The notes beneath the pieces are model-generated. The model was given only the letters and a program-made list of their open reading frames with translations, was not told the DNA's origin and made no database searches. Positions 31,877 to 42,427 of a stretch of 42,496 nt of DNA are shown here, in pieces; the stretch's first letter is position 1, and the number at the start of each line of letters is the position of its first letter. The DNA lies in IMG/VR virus record IMGVR_UViG_3300028423_001131, positions 1-42,496 of that record. One strand, written 5' to 3'. Source of the stretch: a virus. A program made the translations under genes and the position numbers.

Positions 31877-31905
31877 TTGACAGATTGACTTAGGCAATAT
31901 ATACT
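31877..31905 (+). promoter_or_regulatory. Sigma70-type promoter of the transferase/radical SAM operon
   Basis: TTGACA at 31877-31882, a 17-base spacer, and TATACT at 31900-31905, which is 11 of 12 consensus positions at ideal spacing. The expected start of transcription is near 31912, giving a leader of about 19 bases with AGGAGG at 31921-31926 just before the ATG. This differs from the late-type octamer used by the virion genes and implies early transcription by the host holoenzyme. Confidence 0.8.
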
Positions 31906-31930: not shown

Positions 31931-32278
31931 ATGGACGAGAGATTAGAAAAAGCTCTTGATGTAAGCAATTACATGGTAGTACTGAATAATCAAAAAAGGC
32001 TGCTAAAAGAACAATACTATGAAAACACTGTGTATTATCACAACGGCGGCCAATTCACAATTACCAAAGAATTGATTAGTTTTTGCCAAAGCCTAATTGA
32101 TATGCATCAAACAGAAACAATTTTAATTGATGACAACGACATTCCTGTTGAAATTGAAGATTTAAAAACCTTTTCGCAGGAATTGTGTACTAACTATTTC
32201 GAAGCAGCAAACCGATATTTTGTTGAATATAATAAATTAAAGAAAAACAGAAGTGTTGAAAGTATAATGAATCTATGA
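31931..32278 (+). CDS. Conserved small phage protein, 115 aa
   Basis: A soluble, mostly helical 115-residue protein. It begins MDERLEKALDVSNYMVVLNNQKRLL and continues with YHNGGQFTITKELISFCQSLI, then an acidic IDDNDIPVEIEDLKTFSQEL and a Lys-rich end. I recognise it as resembling a small protein family conserved in marine T4-like phages, but no function is known to me. It is the first gene of the sigma70-driven operon and has the strongest ribosome site there (AGGAGG). Its stop overlaps the next ATG (ATGA), so it is coupled to the transferase genes. Confidence 0.72.
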   Translation: MDERLEKALDVSNYMVVLNNQKRLLKEQYYENTVYYHNGGQFTITKELISFCQSLIDMHQTETILIDDNDIPVEIEDLKTFSQELCTNYFEAANRYFVEYNKLKKNRSVESIMNL

Positions 32279-33111
32279 GCAAAGGTGTTTTACTTTTTGC
32301 ATTCAACAATGAAAGTGTAAACTATGTTAAACAAGCACACTTTTTAGCACAGAGAATCTCTAAAGTTCTCTGTCTACCCACCACAGTGATAACTGATGTG
32401 GATATTTCCACAAAGTATCCTCAGTACGCTGCAAGTTTTGACAATGTTGTCAACTGCAATGCCGAATCTTTGAGCAAAAAAAGATACAACGACGGCACAA
32501 TGCATAAGAGATATCTTAATTTTAAAAATCTTGGCAGAGAAAACAGCTTTGATCTTTCTCCGTACAACGAAACATTGGTATTAGATACTGATTTTATTGT
32601 TGCAAATGATTGTTTATTGCAGTGTTTTGAGCAAAACAAAAATCTTCTCATGTACAAAGATGCTGTTCATGTTGGAATGAATAAAAATCTAGACGAAATT
32701 GATAGAATCAGTGACACAGGTGTTGATTTTGTCTGGGCTACTGCAATTTTCTTTAGAAAAACCAAAGAGAATCGCGTATTTTTTGATCTTGTAAAGCATG
32801 TCAAAGAAAATTATTGGCATTATCGCAGCGTATTTCAGTTTAAAAGTCCAGTGTACCGCAACGATTTTGCTTTTAGTATTGCATTACACATTATAAATGG
32901 ATATCAACATGGTAATTTTGCAGGATCGCTACCAGGAAAAAAGTTTTTTGCCACAGACAAAGACATATTAATAGAAATAAAAGACAACAGATTTAAATTA
33001 CTGGTAGAAAAAACAGACCGTTTAGGGGAATACAATGCTGTGACAATACAAAACAGCAATGTGCATGTTATGAACAAGTTCAGTTTGGAGAGAGCAATTG
33101 ACCAACCCTAA
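32275..33111 (+). CDS. GT-A-like glycosyltransferase (GT8-like), DTD motif
   Basis: A 278-residue protein with a glycosyltransferase-A appearance. The N-terminus is a beta-strand start, GVLLFAFNNESVNYVKQA, followed by a strand ending VITDVD. The DxD-type metal motif is LVLDTDFIV (D104-T-D106), which in the family holds Mn or Mg and the nucleotide sugar. Later segments (VDFVWATAIFFRKTK, RNDFAFSIALHI) look like acceptor-binding parts. Such enzymes move a sugar from a nucleotide donor to a glycan, protein or small molecule; the acceptor is unknown. ATGA overlap joins it to the gene before, and the next gene is a paralogue overlapping its 3' end. Confidence 0.68.
   Translation: MSKGVLLFAFNNESVNYVKQAHFLAQRISKVLCLPTTVITDVDISTKYPQYAASFDNVVNCNAESLSKKRYNDGTMHKRYLNFKNLGRENSFDLSPYNETLVLDTDFIVANDCLLQCFEQNKNLLMYKDAVHVGMNKNLDEIDRISDTGVDFVWATAIFFRKTKENRVFFDLVKHVKENYWHYRSVFQFKSPVYRNDFAFSIALHIINGYQHGNFAGSLPGKKFFATDKDILIEIKDNRFKLLVEKTDRLGEYNAVTIQNSNVHVMNKFSLERAIDQP
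33087..33090 (+). promoter_or_regulatory. Ribosome site GGAG deciding a TTG start
   Basis: GGAG lies 7 bases before TTG at 33098, while the alternative ATG at 33119 has no ribosome site. The TTG start also keeps the N-terminal strand seen in the upstream paralogue. Confidence 0.55.
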
Positions 33112-33943
33112 TTTTACCATGCTTGCCCAGAATACCAGTGTGGATTATGTAAGGCAGGCCTGCGTTGCTGCAATGAGTATAAAGGCAACAAACAGCAATG
33201 CCAAAATCTGTTTAATTACCAATGATGCTGTGCCCGGCCGGTACATAGAACTGTTTGATCATATTGTGTCTATACCTTGGGGAGACCATGCAGCACACGA
33301 AGATTGGAAAGTCAGCAACAGGTGGAAAATCTACCATGCTACTCCGTTTAATCAAACCGCAGTAATAGACACAGATATGCTGGTGTTGCAGGATCTCACA
33401 GCTTGGTTTGACTTTCTTGACAACTATGATTTGTTTTATACCAGTTGTGTGTTTACATACCGAGGAGAAGTTGTTGACAACACATACTATAGAAGAGCAT
33501 TTGAACAATTCAATTTGCCAAATCTCTACAGCGGATTTCACTATTTCAAAAAAGGAGATCTGCCTCATGAATTTTATACATGGTTAGAAATGATTACAAA
33601 CAACTGGCAACAGTTTTACAAGCAGCACGCCGGAGGAAAAATTTATCAAAAAACATGCAGCATGGATCTCAGTGCAGCAATAACAGCAAAAATAATGAAT
33701 TGTGAATATCAAATAACAAATCAACGCGCAACATATCCTAGTTTTGTGCACATGAAGCCAAAAGTACAAAACTGGAACTACAATTTAAACAGCAGATGGC
33801 AAGATAAGATAGATCATTATCTTGATGAAAATCTCAATTTAATGATAGGCAACTATTTACAATCTGGTGTTTTCCATTACACTGAAAAAGACTTTTTATC
33901 CGAAAGGATTGAAAGCACATACTGTAATTTTTTAGGAATATGA
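33098..33943 (+). CDS. GT-A-like glycosyltransferase (GT8-like), DTD motif, TTG start
   Basis: A 281-residue paralogue of the preceding gene. The two share the N-terminal strand and helix (here FTMLAQNTSVDYVRQACVAA), an ICLITNDA strand, and the DxD motif AVIDTDMLVLQDL (D91-T-D93). The C-terminal half (LYSGFHYFKKGDLPHEF, CSMDLSAAITAKIMN) resembles the acceptor side of such enzymes. It starts at TTG, overlapping the previous gene by 14 bases, with GGAG ahead of it. The two tandem transferases may add successive sugars to one acceptor, or one may be the more specialised copy. Function beyond sugar transfer is not readable. Confidence 0.66.
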   Translation: MTNPNFTMLAQNTSVDYVRQACVAAMSIKATNSNAKICLITNDAVPGRYIELFDHIVSIPWGDHAAHEDWKVSNRWKIYHATPFNQTAVIDTDMLVLQDLTAWFDFLDNYDLFYTSCVFTYRGEVVDNTYYRRAFEQFNLPNLYSGFHYFKKGDLPHEFYTWLEMITNNWQQFYKQHAGGKIYQKTCSMDLSAAITAKIMNCEYQITNQRATYPSFVHMKPKVQNWNYNLNSRWQDKIDHYLDENLNLMIGNYLQSGVFHYTEKDFLSERIESTYCNFLGI

Positions 33944-33944
33944 C

Positions 33945-34508
33945 ATGTCAGTTTTCATGGGTGTAAACAATGATAGATTTGTTGTGTTCGACGACCAAGG
34001 CGACATACAGTCAATTGGCAGATACGAAGACGCAGCCTATAATAATTTAAAAGTGGATTTTGAACAAGTAAGGAACTTGGTCGAGGGCAGAGAATCGTTA
34101 TTCAACTTCAAAGTTGAGTATGATTTTATAGAAAAACGTTATGTTCTCAAGAACAAGCATGATCATGAACAAGATCAATTAAAAGAATCTTTTTTGTATG
34201 AAATACCCTATACCAAATCACAGACAGAAGTAAAAATCATAAAAGATAATGTAAATCAGGTATGGAAACTTTTGATAGATCCAAAAATACTCGAAGGTAT
34301 ACAAACAGGGTCGCTGCATGCAGATCCAAGGGATCAATACTACAGTGTAACAAGAAAATACAATGCCAACTTTTTGCATCGTGTTTTAAAATTCGACGAA
34401 ACTAGTGAAATACCGTTTGAGTATAATTTCGAATTTGACAATATACCTACAAGCGTTTACACTGTAAGGAAGTTTTCCACATATTCTATTGAGGTTATTG
34501 ATGAATAA
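33945..34508 (+). CDS. Hypothetical operon protein, 187 aa
   Basis: A 187-residue soluble protein that I do not recognise. It begins FMGVNNDRFVVFDDQGDIQSIG, a strand-turn-strand pattern, and is rich in charged and aromatic residues throughout. Later parts are VWKLLIDPKILEGIQTG and FEYNFEFDNIPTSVYTVRKF. No catalytic motif, signal peptide or membrane segment is visible. It starts one base after the previous stop and overlaps the next gene by 8 bases, so it belongs to the transferase/radical SAM operon and may be a partner or substrate protein. Confidence 0.65.
   Translation: MSVFMGVNNDRFVVFDDQGDIQSIGRYEDAAYNNLKVDFEQVRNLVEGRESLFNFKVEYDFIEKRYVLKNKHDHEQDQLKESFLYEIPYTKSQTEVKIIKDNVNQVWKLLIDPKILEGIQTGSLHADPRDQYYSVTRKYNANFLHRVLKFDETSEIPFEYNFEFDNIPTSVYTVRKFSTYSIEVIDE
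34491..34494 (+). promoter_or_regulatory. Ribosome site GAGG deciding the start at 34501
   Basis: GAGG lies 6 bases before ATG 34501, which overlaps the upstream stop. The longer frame from TTG 34489 has no comparable site. Confidence 0.5.
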
Positions 34509-35430
34509 ATTTAAAGTAATTGACTGCGATATCATATATCTAAGCTATGATGAACCCAATGCTGAACGCAATTATGCTGATTTGTGCAAAAAAGTACCTT
34601 GGGCAGAGCGCGTGCACGGTGTTAAGGGCAGCGATAGTGCACACAAAGCAGCAGCAAAACTCAGTAACACTGATAGATTTATAACAATCGACGGCGATAA
34701 TAGAATTCGCGATAACTTTCTCACACAGTCAATTGATTTTGACAAAGACATTGATCTCACAAACAAAGTAATCAGTTGGACAGCCAACAACACCATCAAC
34801 GGTCTGTCATACGGCAATGGTGGCATCAAGTGCTGGCCAAAAAAGCATGTGCTTGAAATGCGAACACATGAAAATGCAGATCCTAACAATCCGCATGCGC
34901 AGGTAGATTTTTGTTGGGACACAGAATATGTACAAATGAATGGCACATTCAGTGATATTTACAATAATGCTACTCCGCATCAAGCATGGCGTGCCGGCTT
35001 TAGAGAAGGTGTTAAAATGGCATTGGATAGAGGATTGCGTGTTACGCCGGAACAATTTTATACAAATCATTGGAAAAATCTACATCGTTTGTATATCTGG
35101 TTAATGGTAGGTGCAGATGTAGAGAACGGAAACTATGCAATCCACGGTGCAAGAGAAGGTTTGTACAAGACCATGTGCACAGATTGGGATTTTGTCAATG
35201 TTAGAGATTTTGATTGGCTAAACACATACTGGAATGAATCAAATATTCAACAGGATAGCCAGCTCGAATTACTGGAAAAAACCGAAGAACTTGGTGTAAG
35301 TTTGAGAATGCATTTGGATTTGCCTATTTCTATAAGCCCACTTGACAGCGAACAAAGTAATTTCTTCAAAACAGTGTATCAAAATCCAACAAGAGATAAC
35401 AGTAAAAAGTTTTTAGATAGAGAGCAATAA
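34501..35430 (+). CDS. Transferase-like protein with DGD motif (YDEPNAE/RVHGVKG family)
   Basis: A 309-residue protein. Its N-terminus reads IIYLSYDEPNAERNYADL, then WAERVHGVKGSDSAHKAAAKL, then DRFITIDGDNRI with D64-G-D66, a DxD-like metal site. This layout (start strand, conserved helix, DxD after about 60 residues) suggests a GT-A-like nucleotide-sugar enzyme. Further conserved-looking parts are GLSYGNGGIKCWPKKHV and HQAWRAGFREGVKMAL. The same module occurs as the last of three copies in the gene at 41099. No substrate can be named. The short start at ATG is preferred over an upstream TTG. TAATG overlap couples it to the radical SAM gene. Confidence 0.65.
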   Translation: MNKFKVIDCDIIYLSYDEPNAERNYADLCKKVPWAERVHGVKGSDSAHKAAAKLSNTDRFITIDGDNRIRDNFLTQSIDFDKDIDLTNKVISWTANNTINGLSYGNGGIKCWPKKHVLEMRTHENADPNNPHAQVDFCWDTEYVQMNGTFSDIYNNATPHQAWRAGFREGVKMALDRGLRVTPEQFYTNHWKNLHRLYIWLMVGADVENGNYAIHGAREGLYKTMCTDWDFVNVRDFDWLNTYWNESNIQQDSQLELLEKTEELGVSLRMHLDLPISISPLDSEQSNFFKTVYQNPTRDNSKKFLDREQ

Positions 35431-36803
35431 TGCAACGCAGCGAATCAGAAGAAATCAAACGCATAAACGAGCTAACAAAAGAGATATCGCCTACATTTTG
35501 TTTTGCCAAATGGTATCATGCAAATATATATTTCCAAACAGGCGAAACTCACAGTTGTTATCACCCTGCTCCTCATAAAATCAACGCAGATGCACTAAAG
35601 GACAATCCCAGTGCAATACACAATACAGCACAAAAGAAAGAAGAACGGGCTGCTATGATGCGTGGAGAACAGCCTTTGGGTTGCCAATATTGCTGGAATA
35701 TTGAAAACATGGGTTCTGACTACATCAGCGATAGAAAACAGAGAAACCAAACAATATTCAAAAAGAACAGATTAAATGAAGTTAAACAAGGCGGCGCTGA
35801 ATTTGATGTTAATCCGGAATACTTAGAAGTCAGTTTTGGCAACGAATGCAATTTTCGTTGTGGATATTGTCATCCCAAAGCCAGTAGCAGATATCTTAAC
35901 GAAATCAAGCAGCACGGCCCGTATACCAATGTGAAAAACCACAGGTGTGATATTGATTGGTTTAAAATATACGAAGAGGAAAACAATCCATATTTAGATG
36001 CATTTTGGCGTTGGTGGCCTGAACTCAGCAAAGACCTCAACATACTGAGAATCACCGGCGGCGAACCTACTATACAACAAAGCACTTACAAATTGTTTGA
36101 TATTCTAGATGCCGATCCTAAACCTAATCTTGAACTAAACTGTAACAGCAATCTAGGCGGCAAACCCAAACAACTGGAAAAGTTCACAAATCGTGTTAAC
36201 GATTTGCTGATACACAACAAGATTCGTCAATTCAAGTTGTTCAGTAGTATTGATACTTGGAGTAAACGAGCAGAATACATTCGCGATGGTCTAGATATTG
36301 ATGTTTTTGAAAGAAATTTAGATTACTGGATGTGTAATACCAGTGCGCCCATGACACTGATGATCACATTCAACATTTTCAGTGTAACCACATTCCGTAG
36401 TTTGTTGGAAAAAATACTTGAATGGCGCAGCAAGTACAATGATATAGAAACACATCGGTGGCAACGACTAGGATTTGATACTCCTTATCTCAAAGAACCG
36501 TTGCAATACGACATGAATATACTGCCAAAGAACTATGTCAGCTACATGAAAGATCATCTACAATTTATCAAAGAAAATGTTAACGACAACAGTAAAGATG
36601 CGTTTAGTACCATTGAGTATGAAAAATTTCGCAGAGTAGTAGACTATATGGAAAACACTGAGTACCCAGAAGACAAGATCATACAAGGAAGAACCGATTT
36701 TCACAACTTCTTTACAGAGCAAGACCGCCGTCGTGGTAACGATTTTACTGAGAGTTTTCCTGAAATGGCAGACTTTTTTGAATTATGTAAAAAATATACT
36801 TAA
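35430..36803 (+). CDS. Radical SAM enzyme with N-terminal twitch-type cysteine cluster
   Basis: A 457-residue radical SAM protein. The 4Fe-4S motif is C140-N-F-R-C144-G-Y-C147, and the SAM-binding ITGGEP lies at 208-213. Ahead of the barrel are C24, C43 and C85-Q-Y-C88-W, arranged like a twitch/SPASM auxiliary-cluster domain but placed N-terminally, as in the N-terminal-twitch radical SAM family known from phages and bacteria. Twitch/SPASM enzymes often modify peptides or sugars through radical chemistry. It is the last gene of an operon of sugar-transferase-like genes, so a carbohydrate or glycoprotein substrate is possible. Its 3' end overlaps the convergent GNAT-like gene by 21 bases. Confidence 0.85.
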   Translation: MQRSESEEIKRINELTKEISPTFCFAKWYHANIYFQTGETHSCYHPAPHKINADALKDNPSAIHNTAQKKEERAAMMRGEQPLGCQYCWNIENMGSDYISDRKQRNQTIFKKNRLNEVKQGGAEFDVNPEYLEVSFGNECNFRCGYCHPKASSRYLNEIKQHGPYTNVKNHRCDIDWFKIYEEENNPYLDAFWRWWPELSKDLNILRITGGEPTIQQSTYKLFDILDADPKPNLELNCNSNLGGKPKQLEKFTNRVNDLLIHNKIRQFKLFSSIDTWSKRAEYIRDGLDIDVFERNLDYWMCNTSAPMTLMITFNIFSVTTFRSLLEKILEWRSKYNDIETHRWQRLGFDTPYLKEPLQYDMNILPKNYVSYMKDHLQFIKENVNDNSKDAFSTIEYEKFRRVVDYMENTEYPEDKIIQGRTDFHNFFTEQDRRRGNDFTESFPEMADFFELCKKYT

Positions 36804-37376
36804 TACGTCTTTAGCTTTTTTCCAGCCGTGTTGCTCTAACTGCTTATAGTATTCATCTACATTTACTCGCCAGAAACACTGAAAAGTTCCTTTATACTCT
36901 AATTCAATAGGATCTTCTAGCACACCAATTTTCCTCATTAGTGGACAATATAATCGATGAACGCTTTGTTGGCTTCCAATTTCGTTTTCATTACTGCTTA
37001 TGTACATTGGATTTTCTTTTCCAACATGTTCGATACAAACCGGAATTAGCATTTGTGGTGCCGGCCCTTGGTGAGTTTTTATTTGATTGTATGTATAGAT
37101 TCTAGTGATATTGCTATGAGGTATTAAACAAGTTCTTGCTGCAATCCTATAAGCATTTTTTCCTAATATGCCTAGTTCTTTTAAACTATGGCTTACGCTA
37201 GTACCTACTATTTTATCTTTATAATAAAGAAGAAACAGTGTGCTATCTTCATATTTTGAAATATAATCAATAAGCATTTCTTTGCTATTGTTGTTGTAAA
37301 ATCCTCTTTCCTTGGCACTCTTGAAGAACTCGGTTAAGTCTTGACTGCCGTTATAAATTTCTAACTTATAATCCAT
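36783..37376 (-). CDS. Small GNAT-like protein downstream of the halogenase
   Basis: A 197-residue protein, last in the minus-strand cassette, with its start overlapping the halogenase 3' end by 11 bases. A strand pair FLLYYKDKIVGTSVSHSL followed by AYRIAARTCLIP looks like the central sheet of an N-acyltransferase (GNAT) fold, but the acetyl-CoA pyrophosphate loop (Q/R-x-x-G-x-G/A) is not clear. The C-terminal half has RLYCPLMRKIGV and FQCFWRVNVDEYYKQLEQHGW. Coupling to an AMP-forming ligase and a halogenase would suit a protein that transfers or binds an acyl or aminoacyl group. The GNAT call is tentative. The stop lies inside the radical SAM 3' end, with no terminator visible. Confidence 0.6.
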   Translation of the reverse strand: MDYKLEIYNGSQDLTEFFKSAKERGFYNNNSKEMLIDYISKYEDSTLFLLYYKDKIVGTSVSHSLKELGILGKNAYRIAARTCLIPHSNITRIYTYNQIKTHQGPAPQMLIPVCIEHVGKENPMYISSNENEIGSQQSVHRLYCPLMRKIGVLEDPIELEYKGTFQCFWRVNVDEYYKQLEQHGWKKAKDVLSIFFT

Positions 37377-38886
37377 GAAAATCTTTCATAAAATCTAAAT
37401 AATCTCTAGATTGATTGCATTGTAAATATAATTTGTTTTTTCTATCGTTTAAATATTTCAAATACTTGTTTTGAACGTCTTTATCTATGTTTTTGCTCCA
37501 ACTGCCTAAATCACCAATCCAAGTACTGGCTAATTCCAACCACATGTATTCAGGAAACATAGTGTATTGTTGTGTTGCAGAGTACAGTGTGGCTAATTTG
37601 TGATTGTACTTGTCTTTAATTAACTGAGTATGGTTGTTCTTGGCGCCGCGCGTCCGTTGCTCTTCCCAAAAATAATCTCCTCTTGGACACAATGTATAAT
37701 GCACGTCGATAAAATCTGCAATATCGTCTATAGTATAAGACACTCTGTGATTAAAATCATCGATGTTGTTTTCATTTAGATAACGTTCAAAACATTTAAT
37801 ACTTGACCAAATTATATAAAGAGCATTTGCTTCCAGTGGTTCTACAAATCCTGCTGTCATGCCTATAGGAAATACGTTGCCTACAGCTGGCGTTTTTAAT
37901 CTAGCAGGTGTCCATTTTAAATTTCTCGGCTCCGCAATATTTTGATCATCGATTATTTGTAAAAATTCTTTTTTTGCTCGATTGTCATTGAAGTATTTGT
38001 CGCTGTATACTAGACCGCAACCCATTCGATCTATTAATCCAATTTTAAAAATCCAGCCCTTTTCATTCCAAATACTTCTAGTATAGTTTTTCATCTCATT
38101 TTCTTGATCTACATAACGCAATGGCGCCACCCATGCACTATTACATGGTGTGTCATATAACTTTAATTCTGTGTTTACATAGTTAATTAAAATTCTATGC
38201 TGACCGCTTGCATCTAACCAATAATCACTAGTATGAATGTCGCCGTTTTCTAGTTTTACAGATAGTATACAATCGTCTTTTATTTCTGCATTTACTATTT
38301 TTTGTTTAATAGTTTTTACACCTAATTTTTTACAAAAATTGTCTTTTAAATAATTGCAAATTTTTTCAGCGTCTACATGATATGCATAACTAAATTTATG
38401 ATGGATATATTGATTATTATCAAACGGAGATTTTAAACTTTCCATAAATTCATGATTAACATTAAAATCTTTTGAAAAATTAGTAGACAAATTATTGTTA
38501 AAAAGATCTATCCACACATCAGTTGATCTAAAATCGTTAGTTCCTAAATTTCTCATGTCTTCCCAAGATACTGATTTGTTGGCTAAAATTTTATTCATAG
38601 GCTCGTTATATGAAAATGCAAAAAATTGTTTTGTATCTTTATCTGTCCAGTTCTCAAAACAGTTAGCATATTTGTAAATGCTTCCAGTTTCTAGCATCCA
38701 TTCCGATTCGGGTATCTCTAAATCATTAAAAAATACAGATATATACGGAGTTACACTTTCACCTACTCCTATAGCAGGTATACTATCGGTGTAGATCATA
38801 CAAACTTCGTATTCAGGAAACTTTTTTTTAACATATGCGGCGGCCATCGACCCGGCTGCACCGCCGCCGACAACGGTAATTTTCAA
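37366..38886 (-). CDS. Flavin-dependent halogenase (tryptophan-halogenase superfamily)
   Basis: A 506-residue enzyme expected to use FADH2, oxygen and halide to halogenate an electron-rich substrate. The FAD-binding GGGAAG is at 7-12 and GVGESVTP at 40-47. K72 in SIYKYANCFENW aligns with the catalytic lysine of PrnA-type enzymes, and FVEPLEA (347-353) holds E352 in the place of the catalytic glutamate. LDASGQ (225-229) is also typical. The W-x-W-x-I-P motif is changed to WIFKIG (278-283). Viral halogenases are known (VirX1 of a cyanophage prefers iodide), and this may be a relative. It starts at TTG inside a TTGA overlap with the ligase gene. A flavin reductase is not in the window and would come from the host. 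Confidence 0.87.
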   Translation of the reverse strand: MKITVVGGGAAGSMAAAYVKKKFPEYEVCMIYTDSIPAIGVGESVTPYISVFFNDLEIPESEWMLETGSIYKYANCFENWTDKDTKQFFAFSYNEPMNKILANKSVSWEDMRNLGTNDFRSTDVWIDLFNNNLSTNFSKDFNVNHEFMESLKSPFDNNQYIHHKFSYAYHVDAEKICNYLKDNFCKKLGVKTIKQKIVNAEIKDDCILSVKLENGDIHTSDYWLDASGQHRILINYVNTELKLYDTPCNSAWVAPLRYVDQENEMKNYTRSIWNEKGWIFKIGLIDRMGCGLVYSDKYFNDNRAKKEFLQIIDDQNIAEPRNLKWTPARLKTPAVGNVFPIGMTAGFVEPLEANALYIIWSSIKCFERYLNENNIDDFNHRVSYTIDDIADFIDVHYTLCPRGDYFWEEQRTRGAKNNHTQLIKDKYNHKLATLYSATQQYTMFPEYMWLELASTWIGDLGSWSKNIDKDVQNKYLKYLNDRKNKLYLQCNQSRDYLDFMKDFHGL

Positions 38887-39941
38887 AATGTTTGTGTCCT
38901 TATAATTTTCTTTAAATTATCATCTACTTTTATTTCGTTTACTACTTTTAATCTAAAACGAGGAATATGTCTGTGCTGATCTACAAACAATTTTGTATTG
39001 TTTAGGTTCCCTGTATAATACACCATACATTGATTGCCCGCTTGTTGACATAGCGCCAGATCGGCACCGGCTTCTACTGCTGACTTTTCAATTTGTTCAG
39101 GATATACTCTAACTGTATCTTGTTTAAACATATTGTGTACGCGCCCATTTAACGTGAATCTATCATAATTGCCATCTACACAATCACCGCTAATCCACAT
39201 ATCAGACTGACTACTCCAACGACAGTGTATTTGACCGTCAACAATATCTAGCTCGACGCCCGGCGCTATACTATCTTTTGTATAAGTGTTTTCTTCTTCG
39301 CTGTATAGTACAATAGGAGGGACTTCTGTACTGCCGTATACATTATATACTTTGTTAGGACGATGTTCTCTTAATTCATCTAACATTCCGCTCGGAGTAA
39401 AATCACTGCCGGTGATTAATGTATCAATACTGCTATAGTCTAAATTTTTCCAATTATTGTGTTTATGTAGAGTTTTCCATACGTTTGGCAATATAAGCGT
39501 ATGAGTTGGGCGTATTTTGTGTACTCTATTAATATAATCAATACCTTTAAAAGTTTCTATGTAAAGTTCGCAATCTAATTTAAGTGCAATATATACACTT
39601 AATACACTAAACGCAATTCCTTTTGGGCTATAGTAACTTAATATTTTGCTATTTTTATCTAAATTTAAAATTTTTATATTTGAATTTACAACTTGTTCAA
39701 TGGTTTCTCGACTGTGCTCAATCCGTTGAGGAAATCCTGTTGTACCGCTTGTAGATAAGTTAAGAAATTTACTACCTTTGTGTCCGTAGCTATAGCCATT
39801 TTGCCAATGCCAGTTGTTTAGCAATTTAAGAACATTTTGTTCCCAGTCAAGACAATTGCTGTAACAATCTATAGGATTACTTGTAACATAATCTTTAACA
39901 TATTGCTCAGAGATTTTCTCACCGTTGATAAAAATTTTCAT
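38883..39941 (-). CDS. Compact AMP-forming (ANL superfamily) adenylating enzyme
   Basis: A 352-residue adenylate-forming ligase, about 150-200 residues shorter than usual. The core motifs are in order: P-loop LSTSGTTGFPQRIEHS (A3, 62-77), VYGSTE (A5, 201-206), SGD (A7, 251-253), GRVHNMFKQDTVRVYPEQIE (A8, 266-285) and DNLKKIIRT (A10 lysine at 344 or 345). The N-terminal subdomain is what is reduced: the P-loop falls near 65 instead of about 150-200. It should activate a carboxylic acid as acyl-AMP; the substrate cannot be read. It has a sigma70-type promoter and AGGAG ribosome site, and is first in the cassette with the halogenase and GNAT-like protein. Confidence 0.83.
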   Translation of the reverse strand: MKIFINGEKISEQYVKDYVTSNPIDCYSNCLDWEQNVLKLLNNWHWQNGYSYGHKGSKFLNLSTSGTTGFPQRIEHSRETIEQVVNSNIKILNLDKNSKILSYYSPKGIAFSVLSVYIALKLDCELYIETFKGIDYINRVHKIRPTHTLILPNVWKTLHKHNNWKNLDYSSIDTLITGSDFTPSGMLDELREHRPNKVYNVYGSTEVPPIVLYSEEENTYTKDSIAPGVELDIVDGQIHCRWSSQSDMWISGDCVDGNYDRFTLNGRVHNMFKQDTVRVYPEQIEKSAVEAGADLALCQQAGNQCMVYYTGNLNNTKLFVDQHRHIPRFRLKVVNEIKVDDNLKKIIRTQTF

Positions 39942-39950
39942 ACCTACTCC

Positions 39951-39979
39951 TAACTGGATATATTATAACATAACAGTTA
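39951..39979 (-). promoter_or_regulatory. Short inverted repeat flanking the -10 of the ligase promoter
   Basis: TAACTG at 39951-39956 is mirrored as CAGTTA at 39974-39979 with 17 bases between, enclosing the -10. It is only 6 bp per arm, so an operator role is a weak inference supported by a similar arrangement at 31893-31918. Confidence 0.3.
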
Positions 39980-39990
39980 GTGCAAGTCAA
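39962..39990 (-). promoter_or_regulatory. Sigma70-type promoter of the ligase-halogenase cassette
   Basis: Read on the minus strand: TTGACT (39990-39985), a 17-base spacer ending in TGT, then TATAAT (39967-39962). The TGn makes an extended -10. Transcription should begin near 39955, about 14 bases before the ATG. The -35 lies within the last codons of the upstream fibre gene. Confidence 0.82.
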
Positions 39991-41026
39991 TCCATTTGTT
40001 GCCGTCGAATCCTTGAAATTTTTTACTGCTTTCGTTAAACACAATCATTCCAGCTTTGGTTGGCAAACTATCCCTCTGTGCAAGATTTATTCCTCTTGCT
40101 TGTAGCACAGGCACACTGAGAATGCCTTTGCCGTCCAATTCCAGTCTTGTTGAAGTTATAGCAGATGGCATTTTAACTCCGTCACTGACACTGATAAAAA
40201 ACTTTGAAGGCATGTAATCATTGACTGTACCGTTGTCCATGGCAAACCCATAAATGCCAGAATCTCTAAATTCATTTTCATGGTATGCATATGATGTATG
40301 GGCAACAAAAACCTCATTGGGTTCGAAGGTTTCACTGACAGTTGACAAAAAATTGTTGCCTTTGAATGTTCTATAAATAATTGCAGGATCGAGTTGTGTG
40401 TCTCTCAATAGTTTATAACTTAATAATTTACCTACTGCATGTATTTCGTGATCGTTGTCACCGATTTGTATTTGTTTATTTGTTCCTAGAATCTTTGTTT
40501 TTTTCAGTGACGTATCGATTATGGTTTCCAAAGTAACAGGATCAATAACATTTCCGTAAAGATTGCCGATGAAATTTGTTTCAGGGTTGCTGTTTAATGA
40601 ATCGTCTGTAATCAGTGTGCCATGAAATTCACCATAGAATCTTCCTTCAAAATAGTCTGCTCGTATACTGCTGTTTTGAGTATCAACGATACATTCGCCG
40701 TTTGTGTCAAGAATATTTCCAAAAACATCGCCGTAAAACGCTTTGCTATCTGAATCTAATACTAATTCATTGTCATTGTTGAATAAATTGCCCATTAGAT
40801 TCGCAGTTACTATACTGTTTTCAGTGTCTACAATTATGTTACCACTGATATCTTCCAAGTTGCCAACCAAAGGTCCGTACAATTTTTCATTTGCTGTATC
40901 AACCATAAGAGTGTCGTTGTCAGACACTATGTCTGTCTTTATACAGCTGGACCAGCTGTCAACAAGCAATTTGCCATCGGCGCCAACTACGTCTATTCTA
41001 TATTGATCACCTGGTATGAAATCCAT
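39977..41026 (-). CDS. Fibre-like virion protein with about 25-residue repeats
   Basis: A 349-residue protein. Residues about 8-130 contain five imperfect repeats of some 24-26 residues with a GN-x-x-(D/N)-x-x-(G/N)-x-x-V-(V/L)-D-(T/S) core (for example VGNLEDISGNIIVDTENSIV, then FGNILDTNGECIVDTQNSSI). This is a repeat pattern typical of beta-structured fibre stalks. The C-terminus ends AGMIVFNESSKKFQGFDGNKWIDLH (key part: KKFQGFDGNKWIDLH), a common end of phage fibre proteins. It has a late-type promoter and a GGAGG ribosome site. It is the only virion-type gene on the minus strand here, wedged between early-type operons, so it may be an exchangeable host-range fibre. Confidence 0.75.
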   Translation of the reverse strand: MDFIPGDQYRIDVVGADGKLLVDSWSSCIKTDIVSDNDTLMVDTANEKLYGPLVGNLEDISGNIIVDTENSIVTANLMGNLFNNDNELVLDSDSKAFYGDVFGNILDTNGECIVDTQNSSIRADYFEGRFYGEFHGTLITDDSLNSNPETNFIGNLYGNVIDPVTLETIIDTSLKKTKILGTNKQIQIGDNDHEIHAVGKLLSYKLLRDTQLDPAIIYRTFKGNNFLSTVSETFEPNEVFVAHTSYAYHENEFRDSGIYGFAMDNGTVNDYMPSKFFISVSDGVKMPSAITSTRLELDGKGILSVPVLQARGINLAQRDSLPTKAGMIVFNESSKKFQGFDGNKWIDLH

Positions 41027-41044
41027 TACATTCCTCCGCTTGTG

Positions 41045-41052
41045 TATTTATC
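41045..41052 (-). promoter_or_regulatory. Late-type promoter GATAAATA of the minus-strand fibre gene
   Basis: On the minus strand GATAAATA ends 18 bases before the fibre ATG and is followed by GGAGG (41037-41033). It is identical to three plus-strand octamers before virion genes. Confidence 0.65.
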
Positions 41053-41063
41053 TAAATTATGCA

Positions 41064-41092
41064 TTGACAAGTTTTTGATATTGCTATATAAT
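41064..41092 (+). promoter_or_regulatory. Perfect-consensus sigma70 promoter
   Basis: TTGACA at 41064-41069, 17 bases, TATAAT at 41087-41092: all 12 consensus positions at ideal spacing. Transcription should start at about 41098-41100, on or next to the ATG at 41099. It is divergent from the late-type promoter only 11 bases away. Confidence 0.88.
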
Positions 41093-41098
41093 CTTTTT

Positions 41099-42427
41099 AT
41101 GTATGATATATTCTTTATTGACGAAAAACAAAAATTTACACAAAAATGGTTACATTTTAAACAAGATTATCCATTTGCTAAAAATGTATCGTCATTTAGG
41201 GATGCTCAACTTAAATCAGTTACCAAGTTTTTTTGGGTAGTATGGTCAGATATTAATATCAGTGACGAGTTTGATTTCTCCTATACTCCAGATTCTGGAA
41301 GTCAAGAATATGTGCATGTATTTCTCAATGGTGAATCATACGATGGTGTTTGTTTAGTACCAAAAAAATCTGAAATTTCAGAAAATGAAATAAAAACTAG
41401 ATTTTTCGCATCAAAAAAAACAATGCAAATACAAGCAAGTTGTCCTACAAAATACGATGTATTTGAAATAGACAGCTATGAGGAATATTTAGAAGCACAC
41501 AAGAAAAGTAAAACAGAACTGTTTTACGCTATACCTTCGTCTGTAACAGTGAATCCTGATTTTAATTTTGATATATATTTCTCTCATCACAATCAATACG
41601 ATAGAAGAACGAATCATGTACTATTGAACGGTAAGTATCACGATGGCATTATACTATGCAGCACGCAGACGAAAATCAGTGCTAAAGAATGGAAATTTAA
41701 ATTTATTGCTGCAAAAAAAGAACACGATATTTTAGCTAGTTGGCCGAAATCCTATGACACAGTGTATATCAGTTACAATGAACCAAATGCAGATAAAAAC
41801 TATCAAACACTGTTAGAAAAAGTGCCAGATGCCAAAAGAGTGCATGGCGTCAAAGGAATTCATCAAGCACATATAGAAGCAGCAAAATTAGCAAATACAG
41901 ATATGTTTTGGGTGGTCGACGGAGACGCAGAAATTTTAGATGATTTTAATTTTGACTATCAAGTTCCAAAATGGCAGTTAAACCATGTGCACGTATGGCG
42001 TAGTAAGAATCCTGTCAATGACTTGGTTTATGGCTATGGCGGTGTAAAGTTGCTTCCAAGACAGCAAACTATTGACATGGATATTTCAAAACCTGACATG
42101 ACAACTAGTATCAGTAATAAATTTGTAGCAGTAAAAGAAATCTCAAATGTCACATGTTTTAACACTGATCCATTTAGCACATGGCGTAGTGCATTTAGAG
42201 AATGTTGTAAATTAGCATCTAAAACAATTGATAGACAGAAAGACAACGAAACAGATTATCGTTTGAAAATTTGGCAAACAGAGGGTAAAGATAAACCATA
42301 CGGCGAATATGCAATTGCCGGTGCAAAAGCAGGAGCCAGTTATGGTAAAAAATATAAAAATTCACCTGAAGATTTGTATAAAATAAACGACTTTGAATGG
42401 CTAAAGGAACAATTTAATGACTCGTAA
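41099..42427 (+). CDS. Triplicated transferase-like protein, last copy with DGD motif; leaderless start
   Basis: A 442-residue protein starting MYDIFFIDEK at 41099. A longer frame exists from 41003, but it would cross the promoter. No ribosome site precedes the ATG, and it falls on the predicted transcription start. Three tandem modules begin at Y2-D, Y119-D and Y219-D. Each has a start strand, an aromatic strand (KFFWVVWSD at 43-51, LFYAIPSSV at 141-149, MFWVVDGDA at 269-277) and a DFNFD-like segment followed by NHV. Only the third keeps the full helix (RVHGVKGIHQAHIEAAKL) and D274-G-D276. It is therefore a paralogue of the protein at 34501 with two degenerate copies in front. A GT-A-like catalytic role for module 3 is inferred; modules 1 and 2 may bind substrate. 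Confidence 0.68.
   Translation: MYDIFFIDEKQKFTQKWLHFKQDYPFAKNVSSFRDAQLKSVTKFFWVVWSDINISDEFDFSYTPDSGSQEYVHVFLNGESYDGVCLVPKKSEISENEIKTRFFASKKTMQIQASCPTKYDVFEIDSYEEYLEAHKKSKTELFYAIPSSVTVNPDFNFDIYFSHHNQYDRRTNHVLLNGKYHDGIILCSTQTKISAKEWKFKFIAAKKEHDILASWPKSYDTVYISYNEPNADKNYQTLLEKVPDAKRVHGVKGIHQAHIEAAKLANTDMFWVVDGDAEILDDFNFDYQVPKWQLNHVHVWRSKNPVNDLVYGYGGVKLLPRQQTIDMDISKPDMTTSISNKFVAVKEISNVTCFNTDPFSTWRSAFRECCKLASKTIDRQKDNETDYRLKIWQTEGKDKPYGEYAIAGAKAGASYGKKYKNSPEDLYKINDFEWLKEQFNDS

What the first reader, a model, noticed from the sequence alone, without database searches (positions are those of the whole stretch)
36783..39990. Viral ligase-halogenase-GNAT-like cassette with its own early promoter
Three overlapping genes on one sigma70-type promoter encode a compact AMP-forming ligase, a flavin-dependent halogenase and a small GNAT-like protein. 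Adenylation, halogenation and acyl transfer together are a logic seen in halogenated natural-product pathways. Single viral halogenases are known, but I know of no described phage unit pairing one with an ANL ligase. The product could be a halogenated acyl or aminoacyl compound, a modified virion or host molecule, or an iodide-detoxifying step.
Basis: partly seen in the sequence, partly recalled or inferred. Interest (0 to 1): 0.88.

Follow-up and report, generated by a model that had tools for sequence, protein, structure and literature searches.

The report
Phage ligase–halogenase–acyltransferase gene cassette
Several unrelated groups of marine viruses that infect bacteria carry the same small set of enzyme genes (one that activates an acid, one of a halogen-attaching family, one that transfers acyl groups), shuffled in order but kept together, which suggests that these viruses make or attach a halogenated acyl compound nobody has described.

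Summary
On the minus strand, genes for a compact ANL ligase (39941-38883), a flavin-dependent-halogenase-family protein (38886-37366) and a GNAT-fold protein (37376-36783) overlap behind a near-consensus sigma70 promoter (39990-39962) at the 3' end of a fibre-like gene.

Ligase relatives lie on 86 other viral contigs fetched here; 32 have a halogenase and 52 the GNAT within 2.2 kb. The set recurs in three gene orders (LIG-HAL-GNAT, GNAT-LIG-HAL, HAL-LIG-third gene), in different genome positions and in two deeply separated T4-like lineages. Of 40 loci with relatives of the second halogenase subfamily, all 36 with readable flanks have a ligase close by. Four contigs carry a fuller cluster (full-length ligase, halogenase, homologous GNAT, ketoacyl synthase, desaturase-like gene); three of them also carry an acyl carrier protein elsewhere.

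The unit is looser than claimed: the halogenase is often absent from the locus or sits beside gp46 instead. Two diagnostic halogenase motifs are altered, so halogenation is unproven. Best reading: a small acyl-amide tailoring pathway with a halogenated product. No isolate phage searched carries this ligase, and no paper found describes the unit.

The parts
39962..39990 (-). sigma70-type promoter TTGACT-17-TATAAT of the cassette
   Evidence: 11/12 match; same position before the ligase in ten related loci with 16-17 base spacers
39947..39951 (-). ribosome-binding site AGGAG before the ligase ATG
   Evidence: read directly in the sequence
38883..39941 (-). compact ANL (AMP-forming) ligase, 352 aa
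   Evidence: PF00501 6e-17; core motifs and terminal lysine invariant in relatives; ANL fold by AlphaFold/Foldseek
37366..38886 (-). flavin-dependent-halogenase-family protein, 506 aa
   Evidence: PF04820 4e-76; Lys72 and Glu352 kept, WxWxIP and FxxPxxSxG altered
36783..37376 (-). GNAT-fold protein, 197 aa
   Evidence: AlphaFold pLDDT 82, GNAT by Foldseek; family conserved in relatives
39977..41026 (-). fibre-like structural gene upstream (context, not part of the unit)
   Evidence: syntenic in fibre-locus relatives; identity as a fibre inferred from its C-terminal motif, no Pfam or PHROG match
35430..36803 (+). twitch-domain radical SAM gene, convergent neighbour (context)
   Evidence: NCBIfam NF033640 1.5e-88; 82-87% identical full-length relatives flank the GNAT in fibre-locus contigs

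Best explanation
The three genes are one functional unit: a minimal phage-encoded acyl-amide tailoring pathway. SHOWN: the genes exist, can be co-transcribed, their families are under purifying selection, and the ligase recurrently travels with the halogenase and with the GNAT. INFERRED: the ligase activates a carboxylic acid without an alpha-amino group (a fatty or other acyl acid) as acyl-AMP, then probably as a CoA or carrier-protein thioester. The GNAT transfers that acyl group to an amine, in the manner of N-acyl amino acid synthases. The halogenase halogenates the aromatic part of acceptor or acid. The likeliest product is a halogenated N-acyl aromatic amine or amino acid; the acceptor could instead be an amine on the virion or cell surface.
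For: Ligase-halogenase adjacency in different orders, genome positions and phage lineages; 36 of 36 readable loci of the second halogenase subfamily have a ligase within about 1.2 kb. Ligase replaced by a different clade while GNAT and halogenase stay (L109 vs L113). A divergent GNAT-HAL-LIG set beside a P450 and a B12 radical SAM (L156). L190-L193 join ligase, halogenase, homologous GNAT (hhalign E 1.5e-12), ketoacyl synthase and desaturase-family gene, with an ACP on three contigs. FeeM is the only Pfam hint and one of the fold hits for the GNAT; FeeM-type enzymes join acyl thioesters to aromatic amino acids (PMC8762209). Purifying selection.
Against: No carrier protein, ketoacyl synthase or desaturase in the contigs of the window's own LIG/HAL type. 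Halogenase motifs altered. GNAT lacks the canonical CoA loop and is below the FeeM cut-off. Some phages have ligase without halogenase or GNAT on the contig (L028, L106-L108) or HAL+GNAT without ligase (L097 contig). Substrates unknown.
Confidence: 0.42

Rival explanations
1. Virion modification: the cassette acylates and/or halogenates the neighbouring fibre-like protein, or sugars on it, changing adsorption, together with the flanking glycosyltransferase-like and radical-SAM genes.
For: Cassette sits directly behind the fibre-like gene in contexts A-D; in the isolate Sf-CH11 a halogenase lies among prolyl-hydroxylase-like genes next to structural genes.
Against: The same ligase-halogenase pair also lives in the replication module and other places far from fibre genes, and L190-L193 add ketoacyl synthase and ACP, which protein modification would not need.
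Confidence: 0.25
2. Membrane-lipid or surface acylation: ligase, GNAT and (in relatives) a DUF6356 membrane protein and a desaturase-family gene modify host lipids or surface amines; the halogenase is a secondary add-on.
For: DUF6356 small membrane protein adjoins the ligase on 29 of 86 contigs, in several contexts; desaturase-family genes adjoin in part of context E and in L190-L193.
Against: The window has no DUF6356 gene between fibre and ligase; halogenase association is too regular in contexts E and F for an add-on.
Confidence: 0.15
3. The 'halogenase' is really a flavin mono-oxygenase or other oxidase, so the pathway oxidises rather than halogenates.
For: WxWxIP and FxxPxxSxG are altered in the same way in the main ligase-linked members, while aligned cyanophage isolate enzymes are closer to the standard motifs; WxWxIP is thought to prevent mono-oxygenation (PMC8407142).
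Against: Lys72 and Glu352 positions are kept in the main ligase-linked clades (some have Asp-Pro-x-Glu); active halogenases without WxWxIP, such as Bmp5, are known.
Confidence: 0.12
4. Chance neighbours: unrelated metabolic genes gathered in a hypervariable region.
For: The flanking region is rich in such genes, and the halogenase is missing from many syntenic loci.
Against: Pairing repeats in unrelated positions, orders and lineages, with ligase replacement in the same slot.
Confidence: 0.06

Closest known systems
VirX1 and other cyanophage 'tryptophan halogenases' (Syn10; S-B64, P-TIM40, Sf-CH11, P-SSM2, Syn1)
   Same: PF04820 proteins in marine T4-like phages; catalytic Lys kept; VirX1 is a relative by phmmer; S-B64 also has its gene next to gp46.
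   Different: 26-31% identity to the isolate genes; their annotated neighbourhoods show no ligase; different motif variants and a separate branch of the tree.
Halogenated natural-product pathways with an adenylating enzyme plus flavin-dependent halogenase (pyoluteorin type: PltF, PltA, PltL)
   Same: An acid-activating ANL enzyme together with a halogenase of this family (pathway logic from general knowledge; PltF is among the ligase's fold hits).
   Different: No carrier protein found in the contigs of the window's own lineage; compact ligase; encoded by phages.
FeeM / N-acyl amino acid synthase pathways
   Same: GNAT-fold acyltransferase; in L190-L193 accompanied by ligase, ACP and ketoacyl synthase; acyl-ACP donors and aromatic amino acid acceptors are the known chemistry (PMC8762209).
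   Different: Below the FeeM Pfam cut-off; about 11% identity in the fold match; no halogenase is mentioned in the pathway paper read (PMC12479983).
MenE, 4-chlorobenzoyl-CoA ligase and 4-coumarate-CoA ligase (ANL superfamily)
   Same: Fold and core motifs.
   Different: About 150 N-terminal residues missing; no close bacterial relative found.

Membership tests
Flavin-dependent halogenase (PF04820) | family profile match | tested here: met
   4e-76, 257 bits against cut-off 21
Flavin-dependent halogenase (PF04820) | GxGxxG flavin motif | tested here: met
   GGGAAG at the N-terminus
Flavin-dependent halogenase (PF04820) | catalytic Lys and Glu | tested here: met
   Lys72 and Glu352 by alignment
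Flavin-dependent halogenase (PF04820) | WxWxIP motif | tested here: not met
   WIFKIG; the motif is also absent from some proven halogenases
Flavin-dependent halogenase (PF04820) | FxxPxxSxG motif | tested here: not met
   FVEPLEANA
Flavin-dependent halogenase (PF04820) | halide transfer activity | not testable with these tools
   needs an assay
ANL adenylating enzyme (PF00501) | profile match and fold | tested here: met
   6e-17; Foldseek to ANL enzymes at 6e-16
ANL adenylating enzyme (PF00501) | core motifs (TSGTTG, YGSTE, SGD, GR..K, terminal Lys) | tested here: met
   TSGTTG, YGS.E, D253, GR..N.FK and K345 invariant in the 14-member alignment; TE/SGD nearly so
ANL adenylating enzyme (PF00501) | complete N-terminal domain | tested here: not met
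   match starts at profile position 170 of 384; the L191 relative is full length
GNAT superfamily | GNAT fold | tested here: met
   strand/helix order and Foldseek probability 1.0
GNAT superfamily | (R/Q)xxGx(G/A) CoA-binding loop | tested here: not met
   not visible in the alignment; the loop is low-confidence in the model
N-acyl amino acid synthase (FeeM, PF21926) | family profile above cut-off | tested here: not met
   15.8 bits against 27; best 0.012 over 14 members
N-acyl amino acid synthase (FeeM, PF21926) | acyl transfer to an amino acid | not testable with these tools
   needs an assay

The most novel reading that the evidence does not exclude
Marine T4-like phages carry and shuffle genuine small biosynthetic gene clusters (acid-activating ligase, GNAT-type N-acyl synthase, halogenase; in some also ketoacyl synthase, ACP and a desaturase-family enzyme) and make a halogenated N-acyl compound during infection that acts on the host, on competing phages or on neighbouring cells.
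Probability: 0.28. Interest if true: 0.92.

Novelty: new variant of a known kind. Interest (0 to 1): 0.74.

Why it matters
Phage halogenases have been known for years without a known natural substrate. Recurrent ligase and GNAT partners turn that into a testable pathway: find the acid the ligase activates and the halogenase substrate should follow. If the reading is right, phages deploy natural-product logic of their own. The work also points to a compact ligase family seen here only in viruses and a distinct halogenase subfamily for enzymology.

Tried and rejected
Bacterial relatives: pattern-plus-tblastn scans of 84,980 species with the ligase and with the GNAT found none; sensitivity is limited, and plasmids gave only remote ANL hits. 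Third gene c12 (about 195 aa) of the HAL-LIG-c12 loci as a GNAT: hhalign not significant against the window GNAT family (prob 0.7%) or against the L190/L191/L156/L178 set (E 0.06); left unknown, although GNAT-like genes hold that slot in L178 and L190. Carrier protein in the window's lineage: none in 12 records. Co-inheritance as a fixed block: rejected, since ligase and halogenase trees disagree and L002 vs L015 have 99.8% identical HAL but 92% identical ligase. T4-type late promoter for the cassette: the only TATAAATA in the window (40372) is on the other strand inside the fibre gene. Two proteins beside the ligase that looked GNAT-like by eye (L112 172 aa, L114 146 aa) gave no Pfam or hhalign support and are not counted. 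The first single-sequence halogenase scan found nothing; the profile scans did.
Full report
OBSERVATION. A TTGACT-17-TATAAT promoter at 39990-39962 precedes them. It lies across the end of the fibre-like gene, and equivalents with 16-17 base spacers stand before the ligase in ten related loci. The window has seven sites of at least 11/12 where a Markov model gives about two. Two others stand at the start of neighbouring units: 41064 before the gene that starts near 41100, and 31877 before the 31931-36803 run. 'Early' timing is inference.

PROTEINS. Ligase: PF00501 6e-17; compact, the N-terminal subdomain missing but core motifs and the terminal lysine kept. The AlphaFold model (pLDDT 83) matches MenE, 4-coumarate- and 4-chlorobenzoyl-CoA ligases and adenylation domains at E 1e-14 to 1e-16. 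By hand alignment (from general knowledge of the A4 motif, not a tool result) the residue equivalent to the alpha-amino-anchoring Asp of amino-acid adenylation domains is Ala110, so an acid without an alpha-amino group is likelier. Halogenase: PF04820 4e-76; solved relatives include ThaL, RebH and VirX1. Lys72 and Glu352 are kept, but WxWxIP reads WIFKIG and FxxPxxSxG reads FVEPLEANA. The main ligase-linked halogenases share the W-x-F and EAN changes, unlike the aligned cyanophage isolate enzymes (motif definitions from PMC8407142; the spacing of the second motif is my reading of that text). In the divergent L156 member the Glu position is Ser. GNAT: fold confirmed by AlphaFold and Foldseek, with FeeM among many GNAT hits; no canonical CoA loop.

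RELATIVES AND SYNTENY. Eight IMG/VR scans gave these contexts. A: fibre locus LIG-HAL-GNAT, the window and six contigs. B: fibre locus LIG-GNAT without HAL, about 40 contigs, many with a DUF6356 small membrane gene before the ligase (PF19883). C: fibre locus GNAT-LIG-HAL (L109, L110, L113, L115). D: GNAT-HAL without ligase (L097). E: replication module, clamp loader-HAL-LIG-c12-RegA, 21 contigs plus partial ones. F: HAL-LIG-DUF6356 (L114; L116 with two ORFs between HAL and LIG). G: DUF6356-LIG near DNA polymerase, no HAL or GNAT on the contig (L028, L106-L108). H: L156, P450-GNAT-HAL-LIG-B12 radical SAM, all divergent (p450 2e-11, Trp_halogenase 6e-30, AMP-binding 6e-11). I: L190-L193, full-length ligase (1e-41), HAL (6e-90), desaturase-family gene, GNAT, ketoacyl synthase (2e-27), with an ACP (GIDSLD motif) elsewhere on three of the four contigs. 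The GNATs of L190, L191, L156 and L178 together align to the window GNAT family at hhalign 97.7%, E 1.5e-12.

COUNTS. Of 86 contigs with the ligase, 32 have HAL and 52 GNAT within 2.2 kb, 74 GNAT or c12, 29 DUF6356. Seeds and patterns came from the cassette itself, so these are not population frequencies. Reverse test: of 40 loci with relatives of the context-E halogenase, 36 have a ligase within about 1.2 kb, four end at the contig edge, none lacks it. The query alignment was built from ligase-linked members, so part of this is expected, but it reached L190-L193 with 46-47% identical HAL and an only 26% identical, full-length ligase. At contig level, the five window-lineage contigs that hold both gp46 and the ligase all carry a HAL: three at gp46 (one cut off by the contig end) and two at the fibre locus. 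The GNAT-bearing G015 (137 kb) has neither ligase nor HAL; G025 has HAL and GNAT without ligase. Numbers are small and contigs incomplete.

EVOLUTION. dN/dS is 0.04-0.12 in pairs with enough change. The halogenase tree separates the fibre/gp46 group with the window, the context E/F group, and the cyanophage isolates; the deepest joins are not all strongly supported. The ligase tree does not follow it: L109 and L113 have near-identical HAL but ligases of different clades, and the 329-aa ligases of some fibre loci fall with the context-E ligases. I read this as repeated replacement of the ligase in a kept functional slot. gp46 is 28-31% identical between the fibre-locus and context-E lineages. 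The former resembles jumbo myoviruses, the latter Melnitz, Pelagibacter phage HTVC008M and cyanomyoviruses. gp23 or a gp6-like baseplate gene confirms several contigs as T4-like, including a gp6-like gene on the L191 contig.

MECHANISM. Committed reading: the ligase makes an acyl adenylate or thioester, the GNAT makes an amide, the halogenase modifies the aromatic part. Enzyme activities are inferred from motifs and fold; halogenation is the weakest step because of the motif changes. L190-L193, with ketoacyl synthase and ACP, favour acyl chemistry; N-acyl amino acid synthases are the precedent (PMC8762209, PMC12479983). Whether the acceptor is a small molecule, a membrane lipid or a virion/surface amine is open. 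No carrier protein, ketoacyl synthase or desaturase was found in contigs of the window's own LIG/HAL type (two desaturase-family hits lie on one LIG-GNAT contig, G009), so CoA or host ACP would have to serve.

NOVELTY. Tblastn of two ligases against 50,697 phage records gives only weak matches to unannotated gut contigs. Five isolate halogenase neighbourhoods show no annotated ligase. Literature searches found no phage ligase-halogenase unit; the VirX1 paper itself was not held, and subscription journals are mostly outside the library. Component families are known; the recurrent unit in phages is not described as far as I could find.

CAVEATS. IMG/VR records are uncultured and fragmentary, hosts are unknown, and function is inferred from sequence and predicted structure only.

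Noticed in passing
window 41064-41092 (+): A perfect 12/12 sigma70 promoter (TTGACA-17-TATAAT) stands before the divergent gene that starts near 41100; another 11/12 site at 31877 precedes the 31931-36803 run.
   Followed up: partly
L156 1914-7671: A second, divergent cassette in a phage that also has the fibre-locus ligase-GNAT: cytochrome P450, GNAT, halogenase-family, small ligase, B12 radical SAM.
   Followed up: partly
L190-L193 (e.g. L191 2601-9341); ACP at L199 1444-1680: Phage cluster of full-length ANL ligase, halogenase, desaturase-family gene, GNAT and ketoacyl synthase, with an acyl carrier protein beside a radical SAM gene elsewhere on the contig.
   Followed up: partly
L028 7759-8004, L006 4514-4732, L114 8875-9141: DUF6356 small membrane protein adjoins the ligase in several unrelated contexts.
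   Followed up: partly
L154, L155, L157: Halogenase directly after gp46 in phages whose fibre locus has ligase-GNAT without it; the isolate S-B64 has its halogenase at the same place.
   Followed up: partly
L132 8896-9489 and relatives: An unknown protein of about 195 aa (c12) follows the ligase in the replication-module loci; a weak, unsupported resemblance to the GNAT family.
   Followed up: partly
L150 5001-8097: Cyanophage P-TIM40 carries two overlapping halogenase genes in tandem.
   Followed up: no
window 32275-36803 and 41003-42427: Glycosyltransferase-like genes (by eye, DxD-type motifs; no Pfam support) and a twitch-domain radical SAM gene flank the cassette and are syntenic in relatives.
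   Followed up: no
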